Of a DNA stretch of 30,130 nt, positions 3,614 through 29,860 are shown one piece after another. The notes under the pieces are model-generated. The model saw only the letters and a program-made list of their open reading frames with translations. It was not told the origin of the DNA and made no database searches. Within the stretch, counting starts at the first letter, position 1; every line of letters begins with the position of its first letter. This DNA comes from Anaerolineae bacterium (lineage in GTDB: Bacteria > Chloroflexota > Anaerolineae > Anaerolineales > Villigracilaceae), in contig JAFLCF010000033.1 of assembly GCA_017303735.1 (NCBI GenBank), positions 1 through 30,130 of the forward strand, written 5' to 3'. The position numbers and the translations under genes are program-made.

Positions 3614-4174
3614 TCAATGTTGCTTATTAGTTTCTAATTGCCTACAGTCACACATAACAGAGCTTTCCCAGACAGTTGTTGTCGTATCTAATTTTTTGCT
3701 CTTTGTCTTTCCAGTGTCGAGTACAAGAAGCCAATGAATCAAGTATATTTTTCCAGTTTCTAAGACATAATGTTCTTGAATTTTCCAAGCTACGTTTGGC
3801 TCAAATTTATAATTAGAGTAATTTCTAAACAAGCGAGTTTTGTAAAGAGGTTTTTCAAGATCTAAAGTGTTAATATGACCAATCGATTGATCAGTTGACA
3901 TAGCATAAATCATTATTTTCGATAAATTCACATCAATATTTACATGATACGGGCTTTTGTTATTCCATATTCCTTCAACCGTAAGTATTGTTTTCTCTTT
4001 CCCAAGCTCAATAGAGCTTACACTGATAGTTCCTTCCAAAGCTGGGACTTCTTTGTTTGCCTTTTGTTTTTCCATCGTTATCCAATTAAAGAAAACCCAT
4101 ATGCCTCCAATGATAATTGATAAAGAAGGCAACCAATCTCTGATGAAATCCAAAATTGAGTTAATGCTACTCAT
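3614..4174 (-). CDS. Small membrane-anchored protein of unknown function
   Basis: This 186-residue protein has one likely membrane segment near the N-terminus (about residues 17-32, LSIIIGGIWVFFNW). A roughly 150-residue soluble domain rich in beta-type sequence follows (GTISVSSIELGKEKTILTVEG, KIYLIHWLLVLDTG), ending in a Cys-containing tail. The gene is A+T-rich like the island to its right and lies between two hsdS remnants, which suggests it arrived by transfer. I do not recognise the family. Single-pass proteins with a small C-terminal domain are common in defence islands, but nothing here proves such a role. Confidence 0.65.
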   Translation of the reverse strand: MSSINSILDFIRDWLPSLSIIIGGIWVFFNWITMEKQKANKEVPALEGTISVSSIELGKEKTILTVEGIWNNKSPYHVNIDVNLSKIMIYAMSTDQSIGHINTLDLEKPLYKTRLFRNYSNYKFEPNVAWKIQEHYVLETGKIYLIHWLLVLDTGKTKSKKLDTTTTVWESSVMCDCRQLETNKQH

Positions 4175-4349: not shown

Positions 4350-5117
4350 TTACCTTTCACTCAAAAGCAACATTTCACAACCAATAAACGTCCTTGCCAG
4401 ATAAGCAGCCTGCAAAATTGGTCGTCTATCAGCAATCAAGTTTTCTCTGGATAATCCTTTCCAAAATCCTTGTCCAATAGCATGTGAAATAACTTCAATA
4501 ACTTCATCACGAATATTTAGTTCATCGTTTTGTGTCATTTCTTTCTTTTTTTCTTTCACTTCCTCCCTTACCTTGTGAACAAAGTATTTAGAGCCAATTT
4601 TTTCTACATTCAACCTCTTTGGCTCTTTTGAGTAAAAGCCATGATCGTTGGCAGCATTGAAGGCAATGTAATGATCATCATAATCCGTTATAGCCCCAAT
4701 TGTAGACGGTTCGATAAAAAACGAATCTTCTATAATAGTTCGGTTTAGATATGATGTATTGAATTCCTCAGGCGTATGAAATTTTGGTGCAGCATAAAAA
4801 ACAGTATTGCCGCTTGCCTCTAATCCAAGCAACATTGGATGTTGTTGCGAACGGATTAAAGAACGAATATGCATTCGAAAGTAGGGCAACCCAAAGTTCA
4901 CCGCTTCTAATGCATTATCCCTTACCATACAATCAGACAACTTGAACTGAAGAAAAAGCACGCTTCCTGAATATTGTATTTGTACATCATACCCGCCACC
5001 TTGCTGTCCTTCTTGTCGCAAAGAGGGAAAGATTGGAGCAGCGGATAAATCTCCTAATCCAGAAAAAGCTTCTGTTAAAGCATAACCGTATGAAAATTCA
5101 GAAATTGATGGTCTCAT
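4350..5117 (-). CDS. Putative PD-(D/E)XK-like nuclease of the HerA/NurA island
   Basis: A 255-residue soluble protein starting MRPSISEFSYGYALTEAFSG. Residues 40-60 read GGGYDVQIQYSGSVLFLQFK, with Asp44 and a beta-strand Gln57-x-Lys59. This spacing resembles the core of PD-(D/E)XK nucleases with Q in place of E. The MRPS-SEFSYGYALT start, the YFRMHI block and the YAAPKFHTPEEFN block look family-conserved, and I believe similar proteins are widespread hypothetical proteins, but no function is known to me. It is the last gene of the four-gene operon, 52 bases after the DUF4338 gene. The nuclease call is an inference from one motif. Confidence 0.6.
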   Translation of the reverse strand: MRPSISEFSYGYALTEAFSGLGDLSAAPIFPSLRQEGQQGGGYDVQIQYSGSVLFLQFKLSDCMVRDNALEAVNFGLPYFRMHIRSLIRSQQHPMLLGLEASGNTVFYAAPKFHTPEEFNTSYLNRTIIEDSFFIEPSTIGAITDYDDHYIAFNAANDHGFYSKEPKRLNVEKIGSKYFVHKVREEVKEKKKEMTQNDELNIRDEVIEVISHAIGQGFWKGLSRENLIADRRPILQAAYLARTFIGCEMLLLSER

Positions 5118-5169
5118 AATGCCCTATAAATACCTAGTTCAGGATAGATTGAAATAATATTCTCAAAAG

Positions 5170-6249
5170 CTAGCTGTCCTCAGCAGTTTGAATGTTCAAT
5201 AGGTTATCTTGCAATTTCGTTATTCTAGGGACAACCCATTTCTCTCTCCAATATTCAACTAGTTGGGTCTCATCGAATATCTTCCACTTAACTCTCTTTT
5301 CTTCCCCCAATAAAAATGGCTTCCAATTATCGGCGAGTACGCAACGATAATATCCTCGTTGCCACCCAATACTCATAATATCCATTGGAAGATCAAGAAT
5401 CCTTAACCCTTCACGTAAAATTCTCATTTTCCAATTTGGACCTTGTCCATATTTGTAAGTTTTGAACTTCTTTTTTGCAACAACCTTCTTTATTAATTCC
5501 CAGCTACCATTAGCTGTTATGTGAATATGGCTTTGCCCCTTTGTATAACCGATGAATTTCCAATTAAATAAACGATTGTAAATAGCAGATTTTCCAAATG
5601 CGCCAAGTGTATCAATATAAACAAGATATGGTTTTTTCTTTTTTTTAGAAATCAGAGGTGTTGTCTGACTATATTTTTTTCGAAAAGTATCTCTAATTTT
5701 TGGAAACATTAAAGTTAAGGCAACTAATTTCGAGCCAAGTATCAGGTTATAGGGAGGAACAGCTCCTAAAATATAGGCAGTCATACAATTATATAAACGA
5801 TCAAGTTTTTGCTCTTTGGTCCATCCAATAGAATGTTTATCTCTTGTTTCTAGACCAATAACAGGGTCACAAAGCCCAATTATCCCAATAAGCTTTTCAT
5901 TTTGTCTATCAAAAACAAAAAACCTTAATCTTCGACCATAACCAGTAGTTACAGGCACTGACCAAAAAGAAGTAGCATAACTCCATAATCGAGCATGTTC
6001 AGTTGAGCTATTTACCTCGACCAAATAAGGGAAAACCTTAAGAATGTCAATTTCATCTCGTGTAGCAATATACTTTTCGACCTTTACCTTGTGTCCACGA
6101 CCCAAAAGATTAGTTTGAACAGCAAGTTTTCCTTGCATTGTTCGAAAATCGCTAACGACTAATTTGTTCTCCTTCTTGTTCCAGAGAACTCCATAATCTT
6201 TCAAGTTTTTTATGATTTTTCGCCGAACTTTTTTCTTATCGTAATTCAT
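5170..6249 (-). CDS. DruA-like DUF4338 protein
   Basis: The 359-residue product carries the DUF4338 hallmarks in order: GRRLRFFVFD (about 106-114), LIGIIGLCDPVIGLETRDKH followed by SIGW (120-143), LYNCMTAYILGAVPPYNLIL (about 152-171), and YNRLFNWKFIGYTKGQ (224-239). In DruA these correspond to RDRWIGW, the NNARFLILP-NLAS block and YRAANW--VG-T-G. DUF4338 defines the DruA subunit of type I Druantia, an anti-phage system; its activity is not established. The start codon overlaps the HerA stop by four bases (ATGA), so the two are translationally coupled. DruB-E are absent, so this is not a classical Druantia locus. The gene is A+T-rich and looks acquired. Confidence 0.8.
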   Translation of the reverse strand: MNYDKKKVRRKIIKNLKDYGVLWNKKENKLVVSDFRTMQGKLAVQTNLLGRGHKVKVEKYIATRDEIDILKVFPYLVEVNSSTEHARLWSYATSFWSVPVTTGYGRRLRFFVFDRQNEKLIGIIGLCDPVIGLETRDKHSIGWTKEQKLDRLYNCMTAYILGAVPPYNLILGSKLVALTLMFPKIRDTFRKKYSQTTPLISKKKKKPYLVYIDTLGAFGKSAIYNRLFNWKFIGYTKGQSHIHITANGSWELIKKVVAKKKFKTYKYGQGPNWKMRILREGLRILDLPMDIMSIGWQRGYYRCVLADNWKPFLLGEEKRVKWKIFDETQLVEYWREKWVVPRITKLQDNLLNIQTAEDS

Positions 6250-8195
6250 GATTTTTGTTCGATAACGTAATTTTTTCCTGTCTCGTCTTTTGAAAGCTTG
6301 AATGGCATATCCTTGTCTTGCCCAGAGAGTTTAGCTTCGGCAATGCTGATTGCAGACTTGCTGGGATACAAATTTCCTTTGCCAGTTTTATATTTACTTT
6401 TGTGCGGGTGATTGTCAGGCAAACGATTGTTCACATCACCCCATAACTGCACCCAAGAGGGCTTAAGGTTGTTCGATTGCTGAAAATCAGTCAATACTTG
6501 AATTACAATTTTCATAAAATCATCATTTTCTTGCACCCTTTGTTTGTTCACACTTTCCCAAGCTTTTTTGGGTTGCAATGCGTCTATTTCTTTAACAACA
6601 TCATCATATTTCCGAATCTTTGCACCAAAAATCACCGTAGTTGGTTTTATGCTACCATCTTCTGAATATACATTTGAATAGAAATAAGCATAGCCTCTTA
6701 AAGGTTCACTCTGTATGTAATGCGCTACAGGCTTATAAGTTGGATTATTATCTGTCAAAGCCCTAATATCTCCCTGTGTAAGAAGATGAAGAACAAAGAA
6801 ATTGTTAGTCTGACTCAATATCGTGTCGTCGATTGATGATGGCTGTTGAGTTATATAGATTAAACCGAAGCCAAACTTACGTCCTTCCTTTGCTATTCTG
6901 ATTACAATATTGCCTTCGTCACTCCTAAGCGCAGATTGAGAAAGAAAATTTTGCGCTTCTTCCACCATAACTAATACAGGTACAGTATCTTCACCGTTAA
7001 CAAATTTTGTTTCATTGTTTCTAAAAACCTTGCTCAATACAATTTCAACCAAACCCTCCGCTGTATCTATTGGCATACGAGACAAATCCATTACGACAAT
7101 TCTTCTATCTTCCACGGCTTCTTGAATTGTAGATAATAATTTCGACTCTGCATCATGGTGGCTAAAAACCAAGCGAGATAACACTGTCCTCAACCCAGAA
7201 GCAGAAACTCTCAACGAGTTCATTTCTGACCCATTGCCGTGCATGCCTAAAACTTCTAATATTTCGTCAAGGTCGGTTTCAAAAAGTTTTTCAGAAATTT
7301 TATCTACAAGCTTGTGCCATTTACTCTCAAGTTCAGACCTCTTTATTGACATTAGCCAAACAGCATAATTTGTTCCCCGCTTTCCAGAAGGAAATAAATT
7401 TTCAACAACCTCCTGAGGAAGCAAATCCTTTAAGTTCAAGTTCGGCTTTCCTGCAATTAAATCAGGATAATCTTCGTTTCGGTCAGCCCGAGAAAAAACA
7501 ACCAACCTATCCTTTATGTTTTTGATATCTGCAAGCCCAGGACTTTGTTGGGTTTTAAAACTGTATTCGCCATCAATATCAAAAATAATAATGGCAGTAT
7601 CATCGCTATGATAACCAATCTCAGCCATAAGCGATTTTATTAGGTTGCTTTTTCCAAATCCCGCTTGACCAAGAATGGCTGACCTGCGTTTCAAGAATCT
7701 ACTCACGCTCAACTTCACATGAACATCTTTATGTACTTCATCGCCAACTGCATAATCGCCTAAATAACTTACATTTTCTTTTCCTGAGTCCAAAGCTGTG
7801 ATTTGTTGAAGTTCAGCTTTATTCGGATATCGTACGATGGCTGAACGATTTGGATACGTTCGAATAACAGGATTTATGCCTTTCTCTTCAAGCACGCCAA
7901 CTAGCCTGATAATAAATTCTTCAGCAAAATAAATATTCTTCTCTTCAGCAGACAAATCTTCGTCAACAATAACCTCTTGTATTTGCGCCTCCGAGTCTCC
8001 AAACGAAATCTGCTTCTCTTCTTCAATTCTTGCGACCCACTTAAGAGCACCTCCATCTACAACAAGCAAATCCCCTAAACTTGGAGCTAAATCTAATTTT
8101 TCGTACTTTACTCTAATCTTGAAAGTTCCCCTTTCTGACCAACTTCCAACGATATTTGTAATCTTTCCGCCAGTAATAGGTGAAATCCGAGACAT
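6246..8195 (-). CDS. herA: HerA-like DNA translocase ATPase
   Basis: A 649-residue protein with a beta-rich N-terminal region consistent with a HAS barrel, then an FtsK/HerA-type ATPase domain. Walker A is GQAGFGKSN (176-184), an IIIFDIDGEYSF strand follows at 202-213, Walker B is VPVLVMVEEAQNF (405-417), and a polar sensor is YITQQPSS (447-454). The Glu-Glu pair and the Gln in TQQP are typical of HerA. HerA forms a hexameric ring that pumps DNA and works with NurA nuclease in archaeal end resection; in bacteria such pairs occur in defence loci. It starts 3 bases after the NurA stop and overlaps the next gene by 4 bases, so all are one operon. It is A+T-rich relative to the flanks. Confidence 0.9.
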   Translation of the reverse strand: MSRISPITGGKITNIVGSWSERGTFKIRVKYEKLDLAPSLGDLLVVDGGALKWVARIEEEKQISFGDSEAQIQEVIVDEDLSAEEKNIYFAEEFIIRLVGVLEEKGINPVIRTYPNRSAIVRYPNKAELQQITALDSGKENVSYLGDYAVGDEVHKDVHVKLSVSRFLKRRSAILGQAGFGKSNLIKSLMAEIGYHSDDTAIIIFDIDGEYSFKTQQSPGLADIKNIKDRLVVFSRADRNEDYPDLIAGKPNLNLKDLLPQEVVENLFPSGKRGTNYAVWLMSIKRSELESKWHKLVDKISEKLFETDLDEILEVLGMHGNGSEMNSLRVSASGLRTVLSRLVFSHHDAESKLLSTIQEAVEDRRIVVMDLSRMPIDTAEGLVEIVLSKVFRNNETKFVNGEDTVPVLVMVEEAQNFLSQSALRSDEGNIVIRIAKEGRKFGFGLIYITQQPSSIDDTILSQTNNFFVLHLLTQGDIRALTDNNPTYKPVAHYIQSEPLRGYAYFYSNVYSEDGSIKPTTVIFGAKIRKYDDVVKEIDALQPKKAWESVNKQRVQENDDFMKIVIQVLTDFQQSNNLKPSWVQLWGDVNNRLPDNHPHKSKYKTGKGNLYPSKSAISIAEAKLSGQDKDMPFKLSKDETGKNYVIEQKS

Positions 8196-8198
8196 AAT

Positions 8199-9287
8199 TT
8201 AATCCTCCTTGCTCTTTATTTCTTTTTTAATTTTTATTTCAATACCTTTAGCAGTTACCTTCTTAGTTCTAGCATGCTCATGTGCTCTTGCCAAAGGCTC
8301 TGGTGCTCCATTAAAGCGGTCAGGCAAAGTTCTTTTTGGAAGACCTGCAATTAAGCTAACCACATACTCATAGCTTCTATCTTTGTATTGTTTTCTGCGA
8401 CCTTCTGGAACACCTTCCCAGTTTGTTTCTGCAAACTCGGGGATTTCCAGAGTAAAAATATCTGCACGAATGTTTTCTTTAAATCTTGCCAGGTGAAGGT
8501 TTTGACCAAACACAACTTCGCCTTCTCGATACAAATCATAAGTATAAGAGAGCGTCATAAGTTCATGGTCATTTTCGACTCTTAAGACAAAAGGTTTCCC
8601 ACTCTTGTAAACCAGTGTGTCTTGAAGATAAATGTCTAAGTGCCGAAGCAAGCTTGACGATTTTGCTACTCCAACGATCAAATTTTCATTTTTTTGGCAA
8701 ATTTCAGTTACTTTTGATTGCAATTTGTAATAAGCACTATTTGGGTCGCGCACTTCTCTTTTGAATATTTTGTTTCTAAGTAACCCATCTCTAAGCAAGA
8801 TAACTTTTGTGTTCTTCTTAGCATACCCAAGAAGCACTGCCCATTCTAGGCATTCACGCAAAAACTCCCGAAGGTTTCTTGGTGGTTTAGTTGAATTGTT
8901 TTTGCTTTCCTCGAGAGTAACTAAATAACTTAAGTCGCTCCAGTTTTTGATCTCAAGAATATCTAGCAAATCTTTTAACGGTTCTTCTTTAAAAAGACCA
9001 TCAACAAAATCGATCACATCTTCTGATGGCACTTCTTCAGGAATTGCTCTATCAACATATACCTTTCCATCCGAGTCTGCACATCGAAAATAACGCCCCG
9101 TTGTGTAATCAAGTTCGATAGGAAAATCACCAGTGTCAACTGAAAAAGCGTGGAAACGATAATAATCTCTGAGTTCCGAAAGGTATTCTTTTCTTTCCTC
9201 AATGAATTCCTTGATAGCTTTAGCCTTTTTCTTTTGCTTAGCTTCAATTTCTTGAAATTTTTCTATACCTTGAATATTTCCCAACAT
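8199..9287 (-). CDS. nurA: NurA-type nuclease
   Basis: A 362-residue protein with a long charged helical N-terminus (about 1-45). NurA-type elements follow: FSVDTGDFPI (48-57, the position of the first metal-binding Asp), ILLRDGLLR (163-171), LIVGVAKSS (203-211), and a C-terminal GAPEPLARAHEHAR stretch like the Pro-Leu-Ala-His block of NurA. NurA proteins are metal-dependent nucleases stimulated by HerA. The gene lies 3 bases upstream of herA and is the first gene of the operon; the roughly 85 bases between it and the palindrome at 9373-9405 must hold the promoter. I rate NurA as likely because motif order and partner both agree, although motif I reads VDTG rather than VDGS. Confidence 0.8.
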   Translation of the reverse strand: MLGNIQGIEKFQEIEAKQKKKAKAIKEFIEERKEYLSELRDYYRFHAFSVDTGDFPIELDYTTGRYFRCADSDGKVYVDRAIPEEVPSEDVIDFVDGLFKEEPLKDLLDILEIKNWSDLSYLVTLEESKNNSTKPPRNLREFLRECLEWAVLLGYAKKNTKVILLRDGLLRNKIFKREVRDPNSAYYKLQSKVTEICQKNENLIVGVAKSSSLLRHLDIYLQDTLVYKSGKPFVLRVENDHELMTLSYTYDLYREGEVVFGQNLHLARFKENIRADIFTLEIPEFAETNWEGVPEGRRKQYKDRSYEYVVSLIAGLPKRTLPDRFNGAPEPLARAHEHARTKKVTAKGIEIKIKKEIKSKED

Positions 9288-9372
9288 AGTATTTATTCCT
9301 ATAAGTACATTCTACTAGCATTGGCTTCTGTCGGCATGGGTCTCCCCATTTCTTCTATTTTACCTGAGCTTT

Positions 9373-9405
9373 AGACCTCCGAGGTCTTAAAGACCTCGGA
9401 GGTCT
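9373..9405. repeat. Compound palindrome downstream of RAYT gene
   Basis: AGACCTCCGAGGTCT, then TAA, then AGACCTCGGAGGTCT. Each 15-mer is itself a palindrome with one odd central base, and the two are reverse complements of each other, so the whole 33 bases also form one long hairpin. It lies 12 bases after the stop of the transposase gene and matches, with compensated base changes, the element inside that gene (9812-9844) and the pair upstream (10069-10119). Confidence 0.85.
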
Positions 9406-9416
9406 GGGTTAAAAGT

Positions 9417-10055
9417 CTACCTCTCCAACCCCTCCACATACTTCCGAAACTCCTCATCCACCTTCCGGTTTTGAATATACTCCGTCACAAACTTCTTATA
9501 CTCCTCCCCCGTCCCAAAATTCTCTGCAATAAACTCACGGTTCACCAGAGTCCCATTCCGCAAGCCCAGCCACTCCAGATAATTCGAAAAATCCCACATC
9601 TCCGGCGAAGCCGCCAGCCCATCCTTCACCGGGTTGGCATGAATGTACGCGCACAAGGTCAACAAATGCTTATAGGTTGTAACCGGCTTGGCTTGGAACT
9701 GTCCCTGAAAAAGAGCGCCCGTCCGATCAAAGCGCTTGTTGATGGCTTTGGTGTAAGAGATCAAAAACTTTTGCATGGCGAGGGACACTTGCTTCGAGAC
9801 TCCCGGTGTCGAGACTTCCGAAGTCTTAAAGACTTCGGAAGTCTGGTTTACACCCACCACCTTTACCAAAAGATGATAATGCGTCGGCATCAGGCAATAC
9901 GCAATGACCTCCACCCGTCCGCGCAGGTAACGCTTAATGCCCTTCAAAAAATAAACATAGTTCTCACGTTCCATAAAAACAACCTGACGGTTATTTCCGC
10001 GATTGTAAAAGTGATAATACTGATCAGGAACAAAAGGAATTTCTCTGCGTGGCAT
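9417..10055 (-). CDS. RAYT / Y1-type transposase (REP-associated)
   Basis: The 212-residue protein is a Y1-type (IS200-like) transposase of the REP-associated group. It has FYHFYNRGNNRQ-type N-terminal sequence (YYHFYNRGNNRQVVF, 13-27), the HUH pair in MPTHYHLLVK (56-65, His59 and His61), the catalytic Tyr in ISYTKAINKRF (99-109, Tyr101) and ALFQGQFQAK (114-123). RAYTs nick single-stranded REP palindromes. The ATG at 10055 has GGAGG upstream. Residues 69-87 (NQTSEVFKTSEVSTPGVSK) are an extra stretch encoded mostly by a REP-like compound palindrome inside the gene and lie between the HUH motif and the tyrosine helix. Palindromes of the same design lie on both sides of the gene. Confidence 0.9.
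   Translation of the reverse strand: MPRREIPFVPDQYYHFYNRGNNRQVVFMERENYVYFLKGIKRYLRGRVEVIAYCLMPTHYHLLVKVVGVNQTSEVFKTSEVSTPGVSKQVSLAMQKFLISYTKAINKRFDRTGALFQGQFQAKPVTTYKHLLTLCAYIHANPVKDGLAASPEMWDFSNYLEWLGLRNGTLVNREFIAENFGTGEEYKKFVTEYIQNRKVDEEFRKYVEGLER
9812..9844. repeat. Compound palindrome inside the RAYT coding sequence
   Basis: AGACTTCCGAAGTCT, TAA, AGACTTCGGAAGTCT: the same 33-base design as 9373-9405 with paired C-G to T-A changes in every arm. It lies in frame in the transposase gene and encodes TSEVFKTSEV on the minus strand. The TAA spacer reads TTA-containing codons on the coding strand, so no stop results. Confidence 0.85.
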
Positions 10056-10068
10056 GAAAGCCTCCAAA

Positions 10069-10119
10069 AGACTTCCGAAGTCTGCGACATCGTCCCCATA
10101 GGGGAGACTTCGGAAGTCT
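10069..10119. repeat. Split pair of RAYT palindromes upstream of the gene
   Basis: AGACTTCCGAAGTCT (10069-10083) and AGACTTCGGAAGTCT (10105-10119) are the same two 15-mers as in the internal copy but are separated by 21 bases that contain CCCC-ATA-GGGG. The first palindrome lies 13 bases upstream of the transposase start, so the element probably forms part of the 5' leader. A GTGTCGAG sequence adjoins both this element and the internal one. Confidence 0.8.
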
Positions 10120-10170
10120 GGTGTCGAGGTCTCAACATAAGTTACCCCGTTATAAAAAAAGTATAGCATA

Positions 10171-10544
10171 AACGTAAAGAATTCTCTTGGCTACCCGAAA
10201 GAAAAACCACCGCTCATACTCCATCCATCCTTCGTCCATCCTATATCCCCCCTTTCAACCTGAAACCGCCCTCTATCCACCCTCTTACTCTCGTCTTACC
10301 ATCCTCTTACTGTCTCTTACTGCCCCAATGTAGCTCCACAGTAGCTCCACAGTAGCTCCAATCAAGTCCCAAGCCAACCGCCACCCCCAACCTTCCAACC
10401 TGACACTTGGCACCTGACACCTCGCACCTTCCAACCTTCAACCTTCAACCTTCAACCTTTGACCATTATTTAACCCAACTATTACCTATTACCCATTCCC
10501 TAATCCCCAATCCCTCATAAAATACAGCCAAGGAGAAAACACCC
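10171..10544. other. Non-coding, pyrimidine-biased low-complexity stretch
   Basis: No convincing gene. It contains three tandem copies of about GTAGCTCCACA (10329-10360), GGCACCTGACACCTCGCACC-like near-repeats (10400-10430) and a run of CCTTCAA heptamers (about 10429-10458). The + strand is strongly C/A/T-rich up to the amylase ribosome binding site AAGGAG at 10530-10535. I see no certain promoter. Confidence 0.6.
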
Positions 10545-11879
10545 ATGGGCGTCATGATGCAAACCTTTTATTGGGACTGTCCCAAAGAAGACGGCAAAGA
10601 ATTTCAATGGTGGAACTATATAACCCGCGAGATCCCCGGGCTGGCGAAGGCGGGCATCACCTCACTCTGGCTGCCCCCCGTCCACAAAGCCGCCAATCTA
10701 TTCGGTCCCTCCATGGGCTACGACCCCTACGACTATTACGACCTCGGCGAATTCGACCAAAAGGGCGGCGTCCCTACCTGGTTTGGCACGCGCAAAGAGT
10801 TGGACGCGCTCATTGAAAGCGCACACAAGCACGGGCTGAGTCTGATCGCGGATATGGTCCTCAATCACAACTCCGGCGCCGACGCGCAGGAAGTCAACCC
10901 CATCAACGGGCAGCAACGCTGGACCGTCTTCAACGCCAAGAGCGGACGCTTCCTTCGTAACTGGGAGTCGTTCCACCCCAGCATGTATGAGTCTTGGGAT
11001 GAAATGACCTTCGGCGACATGCCCGACCTCTCGCATCGCAACCCCTACGTGTATGCCGAGCTGCTCAAGCTTGCGCGCTGGCTCATCGAAGAAGTCGGCT
11101 TCGACGGCTTCCGCTACGACTTCGTCAAAGGCTTCGCCGCTAACACCGTCACTGCCATTCAAGAATATCGCTACATGAAGAACGGTGCGTATCACAAACC
11201 TTATGGCGTTGCCGAATATTGGGACAATGCCTCAAACACCCTGCACTGGGTCAACGAAGCCAACGAAGCCAACTACAACCCGGTCGACGCCTTCGACTTC
11301 CCCCTGCGCGAACTGCTCAAAAACGTATGCGACGTGTACGGCTTCAGCCTCAAGAACCTAGTCCACGGCGACTCGGTGCTCAAAGCCCAACCGCATAACA
11401 CCGTCACCTTTGTCGAGAACCATGACCTGCGTGACGAAGGTCGCCCGATCACCAATGACAAACTGCTCGCCTACTCTTACATCCTCACGCATGAGGGCTA
11501 TCCCTGCATCTTTTGGAAGGATTACTTCAACTACAACCTCGCCCTGCGGGACACCCCCAACGGCATCGACGCCCTCATCGCCGCGCATGAAAAACATGCC
11601 GGAGGCAACACCTCCATCCTCTACCTCTCCGACGATCTCTACATCATGCAGCGCGGCGGGCACGGCGACCAACGCGGGCTGATCTACGTCCTCAACAACC
11701 GCGGCGACGACTGGCGCGGAGAGTGGGTCACCACCCAATGGAGCAACGCCTCTTTCTCACCCGTGGCTTGGTGGGGCAAAAAAGACCTTCACCGCCCCGA
11801 CGACCAAACCACCAACCCCGAAGGGCGCGCCCAATTCTACGCCCCCGCAAGAGGCTATGCTGTTTATACATTGAAATAA
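10545..11879 (+). CDS. Alpha-amylase family protein, GH13, intracellular
   Basis: A 444-residue GH13 enzyme that should hydrolyse alpha-1,4-glucan. The four conserved regions are visible: DMVLNH (103-108), GFDGFRYDFVKG (185-196, nucleophile Asp192), GVAEYWD (221-227, acid/base Glu224) and FVENHD (289-294, stabiliser Asp294). The start MGVMMQTFYWDCPKEDGKEF resembles the liquefying alpha-amylase subgroup (GH13_5-like), with a short C-terminal beta domain ending in GYAVYTLK. There is no signal peptide, so it probably acts on storage glucan or imported dextrins in the cytoplasm. AAGGAG lies 9 bases upstream. It stands alone on the + strand, with no sugar transporter or regulator beside it. Confidence 0.92.
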   Translation: MGVMMQTFYWDCPKEDGKEFQWWNYITREIPGLAKAGITSLWLPPVHKAANLFGPSMGYDPYDYYDLGEFDQKGGVPTWFGTRKELDALIESAHKHGLSLIADMVLNHNSGADAQEVNPINGQQRWTVFNAKSGRFLRNWESFHPSMYESWDEMTFGDMPDLSHRNPYVYAELLKLARWLIEEVGFDGFRYDFVKGFAANTVTAIQEYRYMKNGAYHKPYGVAEYWDNASNTLHWVNEANEANYNPVDAFDFPLRELLKNVCDVYGFSLKNLVHGDSVLKAQPHNTVTFVENHDLRDEGRPITNDKLLAYSYILTHEGYPCIFWKDYFNYNLALRDTPNGIDALIAAHEKHAGGNTSILYLSDDLYIMQRGGHGDQRGLIYVLNNRGDDWRGEWVTTQWSNASFSPVAWWGKKDLHRPDDQTTNPEGRAQFYAPARGYAVYTLK

Positions 11880-17837: not shown

Positions 17838-19109
17838 TCACGGCTTGATGACGTCGATGCCGCCCATCCACGGACGCAGAACCTCGGGGACGATAATGGA
17901 GCCATCGGCTTGCTGGTAATTCTCCATCACGGCGATGAGGGCACGCGGCAGACCCAAACCGGAACCGTTGAGCGTGTGCGGGAATTTGACCTTCCCGCCA
18001 TCGGCTGGTCGATATTTGATGTTGGCGCGGCGGGCTTGGAAGTCGGTGTCGTTTGAGACCGATGACACTTCCAGCCATTCGTTACAGCCGGGTGCCCACA
18101 ATTCGAGGTCATAGGTCATGGTTGCGCCGAAGCCGATGTCGCCGGTGCAGAGCTGTTTGACACGATACGGAATGCCTAACTGTGCACAAGTCTCTTCGGC
18201 ATCTTTCAACATCTTCTGGTGCATCGCCTCTGATTCTTCGGGTTTGCAGTAGATGTACATCTCAACCTTGTCGAATTGATGTCCGCGTTTGATGCCGCGC
18301 ACATCGCGCCCAGCGCTCATCTTCTCGCGGCGGAAACAAGGCGTGTATGCCGTGTATTGACGCGGTAGGAAGCTCTCTTCCATGATCTCGTCCATGTGCA
18401 AACCGGTGAGCGGAATCTCCGCAGTGGGCACGAAGTAGTAATCTTCCTCGTGATCTTTGTAGAGATTATCGGCAAACTTGGGCAGTTGACCTGCGCCATA
18501 GACAGTCGCGGTTTTGACCATGAATGGCAGGTACTCTTCTTGATAACCCTGACGAGTGTGCAGGTCGAGCATCCATGCAATGAGAGCACGTTGTAAGCGC
18601 GCGCCTGCTTTTTGTAATACGTAAAAACGGGAACCGGTCAGCTTGGTGCCGCGTTCAAAGTCAATGATGCCGAGCGCAGGTCCGAGGTCCCAGTGCGGAA
18701 GCGGGGTGAAGTCAAATTTGCGCGGCTCCCCCACCGTCTTGATGACGATGTTCTCGCTGTCATCTTTGCCATACGGCGTGCGCGGATCGGGGATGTTCGG
18801 CAACGTGGACATGAGGTAATTCAGTTCGGATTCGACCTCCGCCACGACCTTATCCAACTCTGTGATCTTGTCGCCCACCACACGCATCGCCTCGATCTTG
18901 GACTGGCGTTCTGCGGCGTCTTTCATTTTGCCGATCTCTTTCGAGACGACGTTGCGCTCCGCTTTGAGCTGCTCCACTTCACTGAGCAGACCACGGCGCT
19001 TTTCATCCAACGCCAAAATGGAGTCGACGGGAGCCGGGTTGTCCTGGCGGTCTTGCAATGCCTTGCGGACAACTTCTGGGTTTTCACGAAGCAAATTGAT
19101 ATCGAGCAT
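17838..19109 (-). CDS. serS: Seryl-tRNA synthetase
   Basis: A 423-residue class II aminoacyl-tRNA synthetase that charges tRNA-Ser. An N-terminal coiled-coil arm ([20 protein letters not shown] onward to about residue 105) precedes the catalytic domain. That domain includes [16 protein letters not shown], motif 2 ([20 protein letters not shown]), and motif 3 with [18 protein letters not shown] near the end, where the Arg that binds ATP sits. The family length is about 420-430, so the gene is complete. The ATG at 19109 is chosen over one nine codons upstream because GGAGGTG lies just before it. A T-box leader immediately upstream should tie expression to uncharged tRNA-Ser. Confidence 0.96.
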
Positions 19110-19145
19110 GTTGCACCTCCGAGTGCATAACACCATGAAAGGTGT

Positions 19146-19480: not shown

Positions 19481-19493
19481 CGCTGCTAAATAG

Positions 19494-19566
19494 TGCCCCC
19501 ACGGGGATTCGAACCCCGGTCGTGGCCTTGAAAGGGCCGCGTCCTAGTCCACTAGACGATGGGGGC
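19494..19566 (-). tRNA. tRNA-Glu (UUC anticodon)
   Basis: Read on the minus strand this is a complete 73-base cloverleaf without encoded CCA. The acceptor GCCCCCA pairs with TGGGGGC, followed by discriminator A. The D arm is GTCTAGTGGACTAGGAC, the anticodon stem and loop are GGCCCTTTCAAGGCC with anticodon TTC, and the T arm is CCGGGGTTCGAATCCCCG, with the usual GGTTCGAATCC. It lies between the 184-residue protein gene and serS, with its own terminator. Confidence 0.96.
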
Positions 19567-27824: not shown

Positions 27825-29048
27825 ATGACAGAAAACCTGACCAACGAAGAAAAACGAGTAATATTTTATTCTGATGAGACTCAACCTACTATAGCCAGTA
27901 GTGTTAATCCTGACACATCTCTATCAGCACTAAATCTAAATTGGCGCGAAAAGGACCTGCCGGAACGAGAAAGAACAAAGCATGTTCATCGCCTTCACCC
28001 ATATTTAGGAAAATTTATTCCCCAATTAGTTGAAATATTTTTGAGAAAATATTTCAAACCTGGGCAAACAGTATTAGACCCTTTTGGCGGCTCTGGGACT
28101 ACTCTTGTTCAAGCAAATGAATTAGGCGTTAATTCCGTCGCCTACGATATATCTGCCTTCAATGTGCTTTTAATGCGAGCGAAAACGGATAGATATGATT
28201 TGAAGAAAGTCAAACTCGAAATTACTGATATTTTGGAACGAGTTAATTTAGAAACGCAAACACACGCTCATCAATTGACTCTTTGGGAAAAAGGCGGGGA
28301 ATACAACGTTAATCTTCAAAATGAATATTTATCCACTTGGTTCGCTCCTCAAGCGTTACGAGAGTTAATTACCTATCGAAATTTAATTGAGCAATATGAA
28401 TATCAGCACCTCTTGAAGGTTATTTTATCTAGATCTGCTCGCTCATCTCGTCTTACAACTCATTTTGACTTAGACTTCCCAAAGAAACCTCAGACGGAAC
28501 CATATTGGTGCTATAAGCACGCCAGAACCTGCGTACCAATCGACAATGCATTTAAGTTCTTGAAGCGTTATAGCTTAGATACAATTAAAAGACTTGAAGA
28601 ATACTCTGCTCTAAGAACTAATGCTCAAGTTTCAATATTTCATGGTGATAGCAGGCTTGAAAAGATTCCTCCAATTGACGGGTTGATTACTAGTCCGCCT
28701 TATGTTGGTCTTATTGATTATCACGAACAACATCGATATGCATATGAACTCTTTGGTTTAGAAGATCGCCGTTCCAATGAAATTGGACCTGCTGAACAAG
28801 GTTCTAGCCAAAAAGCAAAAAAAGCCTATCAAGAAGCTTTATCACAGGTTTTCATTAATGCTATGAAATCCATGACTCCTGGAGGCTATTTGGTTGTAGT
28901 AGCTGGAGATAAGCATGGACTTTATGATGAAATAGCGGAAAATTGCGGTGTAGTTGTAGAAGCTATCGTGAGGCGACATGTCAATCGTCGAACAGGAAGA
29001 CGTTCAACAGAATTTTATGAAGATATATTTATATGGAGAAAACCATGA
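27825..29048 (+). CDS. Type II DNA methyltransferase, probably N4-cytosine
   Basis: A 407-residue modification enzyme. Motif I, VLDPFGGSGTT (83-93), binds S-adenosylmethionine, and motif IV, TSPPYVGL (289-296), is the catalytic loop; the TSPPY form is typical of N4-cytosine methylases. The 195-residue gap between them probably holds the target recognition part, since motif I comes first. A later FYEDIFIWRKP closes the sequence. GAGGAT precedes the ATG. Its stop overlaps the start of the endonuclease gene (ATGA), so the pair is a translationally coupled restriction-modification operon. It is A+T-rich compared with the flanks and likely acquired. Confidence 0.9.
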   Translation: MTENLTNEEKRVIFYSDETQPTIASSVNPDTSLSALNLNWREKDLPERERTKHVHRLHPYLGKFIPQLVEIFLRKYFKPGQTVLDPFGGSGTTLVQANELGVNSVAYDISAFNVLLMRAKTDRYDLKKVKLEITDILERVNLETQTHAHQLTLWEKGGEYNVNLQNEYLSTWFAPQALRELITYRNLIEQYEYQHLLKVILSRSARSSRLTTHFDLDFPKKPQTEPYWCYKHARTCVPIDNAFKFLKRYSLDTIKRLEEYSALRTNAQVSIFHGDSRLEKIPPIDGLITSPPYVGLIDYHEQHRYAYELFGLEDRRSNEIGPAEQGSSQKAKKAYQEALSQVFINAMKSMTPGGYLVVVAGDKHGLYDEIAENCGVVVEAIVRRHVNRRTGRRSTEFYEDIFIWRKP

Positions 29049-29860
29049 TAAATCCACAACTACGAGCAACAATCAAAGGATATTTAGAAGGCTTTATTGA
29101 TGGTTTGGTTCAACAGCATAAACCTACAGATAAGCCACCTCGGCTCTTGAGAGAAGGCTTTGAAGAAGAACCACCGACTGACGGAGGGTATAAGCCTTTT
29201 CACGAAGCTATTATTCCAGAACAATTGCTGCGAGTTAGTGCTTTTGAAAGATCATTCTCAACTAAACTGGGGTCAACATTTGAAGAATGTGCTCGACTTA
29301 TTGCCTCTCAAACTTTCAAAACTGCCCGCCGAAATTTTGTCGCAACAGGTCAAATGCCAGCGGCAGCAACGGTGAGAATTGAACAACTTGTAAATCAAAT
29401 TACTTCTGAACACAAACCAAACTTTTTAAATTTTATCGATGAAGTACTTAAAGTAGAAGATAAAAATTGGGTTGAAAGACCAGTAGTTGCAGATTTGTTT
29501 TTGGAAAATGACAAGGGTGTTCGCTATTTCTTTGAAATAAAGTCTCCTAAACCTAACAAAGGTCAATGCTTAGAAATAGCTGAACGGCTACTTCGAGTTC
29601 ATGCAATAACCCAAGAAAAACGTCCTAAAGTCAATGCATACTTTGCTATGGCGTATAACCCTTACGGTAATCGGCGAGAGGATTACAAACATAGTTTTAG
29701 TATCCAATACCTTGATATGAAAAACGAAGTTCTAATTGGTGATGAATTTTGGACAATTATCGGTGGAAAAGGAACATACGAAGAACTTCTCGATATTTAT
29801 CGTGAAGTAGGATATGAAAAATCAAAAGCCATGATGGATGCATTATTATTTGGATTTTAG
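29045..29860 (+). CDS. TdeIII/MjaII-family type II restriction endonuclease
   Basis: A 271-residue enzyme partner of the methylase. The block YKPFHEAIIPEQLLRVSAFE followed by RSFSTKLGSTFEECARLIA (49-87) is the signature I know for the TdeIII-type family. The nuclease core is VVADLFLENDKGVRYFFEIK (147-166), a PD-(D/E)XK arrangement with Asp150, Glu164 and Lys166. Family members such as TdeIII and MjaII recognise GGNCC; this target is an inference for the present enzyme. The ATG at 29045 overlaps the methylase stop, with GGAG 10 bases upstream. A terminator follows at 29938. Confidence 0.88.
   Translation: MINPQLRATIKGYLEGFIDGLVQQHKPTDKPPRLLREGFEEEPPTDGGYKPFHEAIIPEQLLRVSAFERSFSTKLGSTFEECARLIASQTFKTARRNFVATGQMPAAATVRIEQLVNQITSEHKPNFLNFIDEVLKVEDKNWVERPVVADLFLENDKGVRYFFEIKSPKPNKGQCLEIAERLLRVHAITQEKRPKVNAYFAMAYNPYGNRREDYKHSFSIQYLDMKNEVLIGDEFWTIIGGKGTYEELLDIYREVGYEKSKAMMDALLFGF

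What the first reader, a model, noticed from the sequence alone, without database searches (positions are those of the whole stretch)
4350..9287. Four-gene NurA-HerA-DUF4338-255aa operon: candidate undescribed defence system
The genes are packed head to tail (gaps of 3 bases, a 4-base overlap, then 52 bases), are A+T-rich, and sit beside restriction gene remnants and a transposase. HerA-NurA pairs are DNA-resecting machines that have been reused in bacterial defence. DUF4338 is the DruA domain of Druantia. The fourth protein has a D-x12-QxK nuclease-like core and no known role. DruB-E are absent, and I know of no named system with this set. One model is that HerA-NurA processes DNA found or nicked with the help of the DUF4338 and 255-residue proteins.
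Basis: partly seen in the sequence, partly recalled or inferred. Interest (0 to 1): 0.88.

Follow-up and report, generated by a model that had tools for sequence, protein, structure and literature searches.

The report
DruA-NurA-HerA DNA-destroying defence operon
Three bacterial genes that recur together pair a likely DNA-pumping and DNA-cutting machine with a protein known from another anti-virus system, and here a separate nuclease-like gene sits beside them; the set looks like a so far unnamed way of destroying invading DNA, which still has to be tested.

Summary
In detail: NurA, HerA, DruA (DUF4338) and a 255-aa protein (P255) lie head to tail on the minus strand, 9287 to 4350. The "four-gene system" does not hold as stated. 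NurA+HerA+DruA recurs: 17 of 24 DruA loci from genome scans have all three, but 0 of 24 have P255 (two loci end at contig edges). P255 recurs in 41 other loci, 0 of which have trio-type genes; in 13 of 30 loci scanned a large neighbour matches a PADLOC defence model strongly, and its predicted fold resembles PD-(D/E)xK resolvases. So: a three-gene core plus a separate accessory.

Trees indicate that a HerA-NurA pair was exchanged around a stable DruA, and some trios sit beside CBASS, AbiE or R-M genes. This favours defence, with HerA-NurA shredding dsDNA. DruA is predicted to be a GNAT fold and relatives occur without HerA/NurA in 81 of 81 phage loci examined. Boldest reading: DruA chemically marks DNA. 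That is unproven, as is any phage protection. I found no description of the trio in the papers searched. New variant of a known kind.

The parts
8199..9287 (-). NurA-domain protein, 362 aa, first gene of the operon (core)
   Evidence: Pfam PF09376 E=1.3e-5; D167, G168, K209 invariant in 22 of 22 aligned, D73 in at least 90%
6246..8195 (-). HerA-type hexameric ATPase/translocase, 649 aa (core)
   Evidence: Pfam DUF87 E=3.6e-21; best PDB sequence match TdpA 8wet E=5.8e-27; G179, G181, K182, D206, D370, E413, R439 invariant in 15 of 15 aligned
5170..6249 (-). DruA (DUF4338), 359 aa, predicted GNAT fold (core)
4350..5117 (-). P255, 255 aa, PD-(D/E)xK-like protein, accessory and not part of the recurring core

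Best explanation
NurA-HerA-DruA is a three-gene anti-invader system. A HerA hexamer pumps double-stranded DNA into a NurA dimer that cuts both strands (published for archaeal HerA-NurA, inferred here). DruA, a predicted GNAT-fold protein, is the partner that decides which DNA is attacked, in my preferred version by chemically marking host DNA, otherwise by tagging foreign DNA (inferred). P255 is a separate nuclease-like accessory that has joined this operon, as relatives have joined the neighbourhood of Gabija, restriction-modification and other systems. Shown here: recurrence of the trio, exchange of the HerA-NurA pair around DruA, intact HerA motor residues, defence neighbours at some trio loci, independence of P255 from the trio, predicted folds. 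Not shown: phage protection, DNA degradation by these proteins, any chemistry of DruA.
For: Trio in 17 of 24 DruA loci (9 of 14, 5 of 5, 0 of 1, 3 of 4 in the four phylum searches with matches; loci read, recounted), against no trio-type gene in 635,513 bases of P255 loci. Patchy: DruA matches in 24 of 1333 genomes in the five phylum searches. Pair exchange: window against L078 is DruA 60%, HerA 18%, NurA 16%, and the trees disagree accordingly. Defence neighbours: CBASS-type cyclase 2.1e-105 and type IIG-like enzyme at L062, AbiEi/AbiEii at L059; TmtA between DruA and NurA at L088. Archaeal HerA-NurA cuts both strands of dsDNA whatever the end structure, and its authors suggest virus defence (PMC12977600, abstract and passages). 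P255: 13 of 30 scanned neighbours match PADLOC at 1e-20 or better.
Against: No phage assay. Of ten proteins scanned near trios, those of L061, L075 and L089 matched nothing in PADLOC, and the flanks of the Nostoc-led trios read by eye look like ordinary genes, with L076 and L077 at the same place near a gene that looks like ribosomal protein S4, which could fit a housekeeping role. 12 of the 17 trios supplied the profiles used for the final count, so those profile hits are by construction; their NurAs were first found by Pfam (7 loci, two below cut-off) or by a profile of the first eight (5 loci). NurA is remote from solved NurAs (best E=0.033). PMC10853773 (passages) reads the GNAT-like DUF4338 fused to DndF as one of several possible suicidal effectors, which goes against the marking idea. 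7 of 24 DruA loci lack the trio. No random-gene control was run for the PADLOC matches.
Confidence: 0.55

Rival explanations
1. DNA repair or chromosome maintenance: HerA-NurA resects broken chromosomal ends, as first proposed in archaea, and DruA modulates this. No anti-phage role.
For: HerA-NurA is best known from archaeal end resection (titles and abstracts). Flanks of the Nostoc-led trios look ordinary by eye.
Against: Patchy presence, 5 of 292 genomes in that phylum search. Exchange of the pair around DruA. Defence neighbours at L059, L062, L088. DruA is otherwise known from Druantia. PMC12977600 argues that HerA-NurA of Thermococcus is unlikely to work directly in resection (abstract).
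Confidence: 0.15
2. DruA is a GNAT-type toxin or effector that modifies a protein or tRNA when HerA-NurA senses or processes foreign DNA (abortive infection).
For: GNAT fold. PMC10853773 proposes suicidal action for GNAT domains fused to DndF (passages). A 'bacterial toxin' entry, 7byy, is among Foldseek's weak rows (E=0.82).
Against: Stand-alone relatives in 81 of 81 phage loci examined, where a toxin alone would need another purpose such as host takeover. Very strong conservation, 58% mean column identity in 36 aligned relatives.
Confidence: 0.2
3. All four genes, P255 included, form one obligate system.
For: Same strand with a 52-base gap in the window. Relatives of P255 with 77-90% identity lie on short contigs whose context I could not see (P0002-P0005).
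Against: P255 in 0 of 24 DruA loci over 400,677 bases; trio-type genes in 0 of 41 P255 loci.
Confidence: 0.08

Closest known systems
Druantia type I (DruABCDE)
   Same: DruA (DUF4338) matches the PADLOC DruA model, E=9.4e-82
   Different: The motor is HerA with NurA, not the DruE helicase; no DruB-E match among the four proteins. DruA next to a DruE-type helicase was seen at L085 (PADLOC) and L060 (Pfam DEAD and MZB)
Archaeal HerA-NurA
   Same: HerA translocase encoded beside a NurA-domain protein
   Different: Third gene DruA; NurA remote in sequence from solved ones (best E=0.033); Mre11-Rad50 linkage not tested
HerA-DUF4297 and SIR2-HerA defence pairs
   Same: HerA motor with an enzymatic partner; HerA matches solved chains annotated as HerA, several of which I recall as these systems
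   Different: Partner is NurA; DruA added
TdpABC (HerA-like TdpA; phosphorothioate mark)
   Same: TdpA is the best solved relative of the window's HerA (E=5.8e-27); with the trio profile it is practically tied with 9c1m (5.5e-27 and 1.2e-26)
   Different: TdpC-like modification gene not looked for by sequence; here the extra gene is DruA. The Tdp mechanism is recalled; I saw only the title of An et al. 2025 in reference lists
DndFGH-like systems with DUF4338 fused to DndF
   Same: DUF4338 with a HerA/FtsK motor and a nuclease domain (PMC10853773, passages); L092 here has a 1247-aa DruA fusion near a 1596-aa protein with a mad8-like end
   Different: Separate proteins here, and the nuclease is NurA

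Membership tests
Druantia type I | DruA (DUF4338) present | tested here: met
   PF14236 E=6e-57; PADLOC DruA E=9.4e-82
Druantia type I | DruE helicase and DruB-D in the operon (type I is DruABCDE: PMC13316683, passages) | tested here: not met
   No DruB-E model matches the window's four operon proteins or the next ORF at 3614-4174
HerA-NurA pair | HerA central domain with intact motor residues | tested here: met
   PF01935 E=3.6e-21; Walker A and other residues invariant in 15 of 15
HerA-NurA pair | NurA domain | tested here: met
   PF09376 above cut-off for the window's protein; metal ligands not settled, as they depend on the alignment
HerA-NurA pair | Complex that degrades dsDNA | not testable with these tools
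   Biochemistry needed
SIR2-HerA or DUF4297-HerA | SIR2 or DUF4297 partner | tested here: not met
   Neither appears among the Pfam matches of the four proteins
TdpABC | TdpB nuclease and TdpC phosphorothioation enzyme | not tested
   No search with TdpB or TdpC was made; only the HerA match to TdpA was seen
PD-(D/E)xK nuclease (P255) | Core fold and D...QxK residues | tested here: inconclusive
GNAT fold (DruA) | GNAT fold | tested here: met
Mom-type DNA modification enzyme (DruA) | Homology to Mom and DNA-modifying activity | tested here: inconclusive
Anti-phage defence system | Protection against phage | not testable with these tools
   Needs plaque assays

The most novel reading that the evidence does not exclude
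DruA is a GNAT-fold DNA-modifying enzyme in the manner of phage Mu Mom. The trio is then a restriction-modification-like system with a new division of labour: DruA marks self DNA, and HerA-NurA pumps and shreds unmarked DNA. The stand-alone DruA relatives of marine phages are counter-defence that copies the mark. DruA would be one discriminator plugged into different DNA motors: DruE in Druantia, HerA-NurA here, a DndFGH-like machine elsewhere.
Probability: 0.27. Interest if true: 0.92.

Novelty: new variant of a known kind. Interest (0 to 1): 0.75.

Why it matters
It joins three threads: HerA-NurA, whose role in repair or defence is argued (PMC12977600); Druantia's DruA, whose chemistry I know of no account of (10 paper searches, none found one); and a DUF4338 gene found in many marine phage contigs. 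If the trio is a defence system, HerA-NurA gets a setting in which its role can be tested genetically, and DruA becomes a portable part used with several motors. The P255 family, without a Pfam, NCBIfam or PADLOC match for the window's member, is a lead to a nuclease-like accessory that keeps company with many defence systems.

Tried and rejected
Four-gene unit: rejected on the counts above. Catalogued system: no PADLOC match for the window's NurA and P255 (E up to 0.1) or for the NurA of L059 (E up to 1e-10); DefenseFinder was not available to me.

Literature (10 searches, open-licence PMC only). 'DUF4338', 'HerA', 'NurA' at least 2: 557 papers, 20 listed. At least 3 of 'DruA', 'HerA', 'defense', 'NurA': 25 papers, 20 listed, DruA in none of the 20. 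'DUF4338': 3 papers, of which I read passages of one. 'Druantia' with 'NurA': 0. At least 2 of 'Druantia', 'HerA', 'DruA': 11; passages read in three of them, no DruA-HerA pairing seen there; the other 8 seen as listing rows. 'HerA', 'nuclease', 'Gabija', 'NurA': 2, listing only. 'DruA' with 'GNAT': 0. Mom: listing only. Tdp: with reference lists. A description elsewhere is not excluded.

Plasmids: DruA matches 13 records; the best three are annotated with a DEAD/DEAH helicase nearby and no HerA or NurA. The window's HerA matches 460 records, 0 covering 80% of it. A trio NurA matches 2 records and P255 8 records; neither followed. P255 in phage records: none.

Full report
Anatomy. The four ORFs lie on the minus strand at 9287-8199, 8195-6246, 6249-5170 and 5117-4350, with a 3-base gap, a 4-base overlap and a 52-base gap. 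GC is about 0.35-0.40 in the island and 0.44-0.57 in the next several kb on each side. Pfam assigns NurA, HerA (DUF87) and DruA; the 255-aa protein (P255) has no Pfam, PADLOC or NCBIfam match. The longest contig listed for the window's own P255 is 30,130 bases, the length of the window, and no whole genome is held, so the host is not identified. I guessed Chloroflexota from the look of the window and did not test it; the closest trio among the loci read, with DruA 68% identical, turned up in the search led by a 'Chloroflexi' record.

P255 is not tied to the trio. It has 1299 homologues at E up to 0.001, 120 listed; E7, E36, D44, Q57 and K59 are invariant in the 30 that I aligned. The genome scan gave 40 loci and a viral scan 1. 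With profiles of 13 trios, no ORF in these 41 loci (635,513 bases) matches NurA, HerA or DruA at E 0.001. In 30 of the 41 loci I scanned one large neighbouring protein against PADLOC. 13 of 30 match at 1e-20 or better: L001, L004 and L011 (SMC-like), L005 (type IIG), L008 (Ppl-like), L010 and L016 (type III methylase), L014 (UvrD-like helicase), L020 (GajB), L023 (type I methylase), L026 (OLD-like), L028 (Mokosh MkoA), L037 (HKD+Snf2). L027 was left out as an rRNA methyltransferase. L003, L013, L015 and L017 gave weak matches, and 12 gave none at the limits used. L018, L022 and L024 carry a gene in the same BLAST cluster as the GajB of L020. I picked the proteins by size and nearness, and ran no random-gene control; helicase, ATPase and methylase models match broadly. 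In 31 of 41 loci the nearest upstream ORF is on the strand of P255; in 21 it lies within 125 bases, not counting L032, where it is a piece of a split P255. Several of these ORFs are short and doubtful. At L003 the upstream gene, 4 bases away, is a distant HerA-like or mad8-like ATPase (E 4.7e-5 and 1e-9).

The trio recurs. The window's DruA was searched in five phyla. Genomes with a match: 14 of 301 (E 1e-8), then at E 1e-20 5 of 292, 1 of 246, 4 of 247 and 0 of 247. All 24 loci were read with flanks. A recount without ORF selection gives the trio in 17 of 24, and P255 in 0 of 24 over 400,677 bases. By search: 9 of 14 (L059, L061, L062, L064, L065, L066, L068, L090, L091; L090 and L091 are near-copies, and the NurA of L091 is split in two), 5 of 5 (L075-L079), 0 of 1, 3 of 4 (L087, L088, L089). 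Order NurA-HerA-DruA, as in the window: 7 (L059, L075-L079, L089). Order DruA-NurA-HerA: 9. L088 has DruA, TmtA, NurA, HerA. The 7 without a trio: L060 and L085 have a DruE-type helicase and L063 one that looks alike by its first residues; L069 has DruA and HerA but no NurA match; L092 has DruA in a 1247-aa fusion near a 1596-aa protein with a mad8-like end; L067 and L086 end at a contig edge. 12 of the 17 supplied the profiles, so their final hits are by construction. Of these, seven NurAs were first seen as Pfam matches (L065 and L066 below cut-off) and five by a profile of the first eight. Besides, of 8 NurA homologues in the protein search, 3 (P0243, P0247, P0248) share their longest-contig length with a listed DruA homologue (P0238, P0190, P0223), which suggests linkage there too.

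Exchange of the HerA-NurA pair. Window against L078: DruA 60%, HerA 18%, NurA 16% identity. In the DruA tree L078 and L079 fall in the clade of the window, L059 and L075-L077 with support 100/100; in the HerA and the NurA tree they fall with L062, 100/100 each. So the pair seems to have moved as a unit around DruA. Caution: the tool flags long branches (the window and L062), so the exact join with L062 is unsure; but L078 and L079 are 34-43% identical in HerA to the DruA-NurA-HerA group and 16-18% to the window's clade, whatever the join. HerA motor residues G179, G181, K182, D206, D370, E413 and R439 are invariant in the 15 aligned, of 18 with the window. In NurA, D167, G168 and K209 are invariant in 22 aligned.

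Defence setting. Ten proteins near trios were scanned: L062 has a type IIG-like enzyme (2.5e-49), a CBASS-type cyclase (2.1e-105) and a PDC-S50 match (2.6e-14); L059 has AbiEi (2.8e-69) and AbiEii (2.4e-79); L091 an OLD/GajA-like ATPase (6.5e-25); L087 a UvrD-type helicase (1.2e-59, a model that also catches repair helicases). Single proteins of L061, L075 and L089 gave none. L088 has TmtA (3.7e-98) inside the set. I chose these by look and size; it is no survey. The Nostoc-led trios have ordinary-looking flanks by eye.

Phage relatives. One IMG/VR contig, L094, has a DruA with 59% identity and no HerA, NurA or P255 match on the 9,759 bases held; DruA begins 695 bases from the edge. Pelagibacter phage Mosig has an annotated DUF4338 gene near putative 2OG-Fe(II) oxygenases and MazG. 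A viral scan with it found 145 relatives, the best 80 kept. In these 80 plus Mosig, 81 of 81 match the trio DruA profile (E 1.2e-27 to 4.1e-20) and 0 match HerA, NurA or P255, in 770,947 bases. These 81 are one family of close kin (77-100% identity), so they are not 81 independent cases. They fit a stand-alone activity such as DNA marking or host takeover, without telling which.

Mechanism. HerA-NurA of Thermococcus cuts both strands of dsDNA from the ends whatever their structure, and its authors suggest virus defence (PMC12977600, abstract and passages). The window's HerA is nearest, among solved chains, to TdpA, which I recall as the motor of a nuclease complex held off by a phosphorothioate mark. 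No methylase was seen among the trio's genes, so the chromosome must be spared either by its lack of ends or by some mark; DruA is the conserved candidate for the latter. I therefore rank 'HerA-NurA shredder with DruA as discriminator' first (0.55), with DNA marking as its boldest form (0.27).

Verdict. Observation confirmed, interpretation partly supported: a recurring three-gene core, new as a combination as far as my searches reach, plus a separate accessory that keeps company with many defence systems.

Noticed in passing
L095 4638-5936 and L096-L175: A stand-alone DUF4338 (DruA-like) gene in Pelagibacter phage Mosig has 145 relatives in IMG/VR; 81 of 81 loci examined match the trio DruA profile and none has HerA or NurA.
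   Followed up: partly
L094 695-1789: A viral contig with a DruA 59% identical to the window's and no HerA or NurA on the stretch held; the following genes look like packaging genes by eye, not confirmed.
   Followed up: partly
L018, L020, L022, L024 around 7922-10807: In four Pseudomonas genomes P255 follows GajB (PADLOC in L020, same BLAST cluster in the others), like a third gene beside Gabija.
   Followed up: partly
L092 5896-15855: DruA domain inside a 1247-aa protein, followed by a 490-aa ORF and a 1596-aa protein with a mad8-like end, resembling the DndF fusions described in PMC10853773.
   Followed up: partly
L088 8624-15810: TmtA (sacsin-like, PADLOC 3.7e-98) lies between DruA and NurA-HerA.
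   Followed up: no
L075 7715-11743: The contig length equals that of a protein listed as Geitlerinema sp. PCC 7407 'Druantia anti-phage system protein DruA', yet this DruA sits with HerA and NurA, so the Druantia name may mislead.
   Followed up: partly
window 27825-29860: A DNA methylase and a TdeIII-type restriction enzyme, in a second A+T-rich stretch at the right end.
   Followed up: no
window 9417-10169: IS200-type (Y1) transposase ORF just upstream of the operon.
   Followed up: no
window 19493-19566: tRNA-Glu gene on the minus strand, with a seryl-tRNA synthetase ORF at 17838-19136.
   Followed up: no
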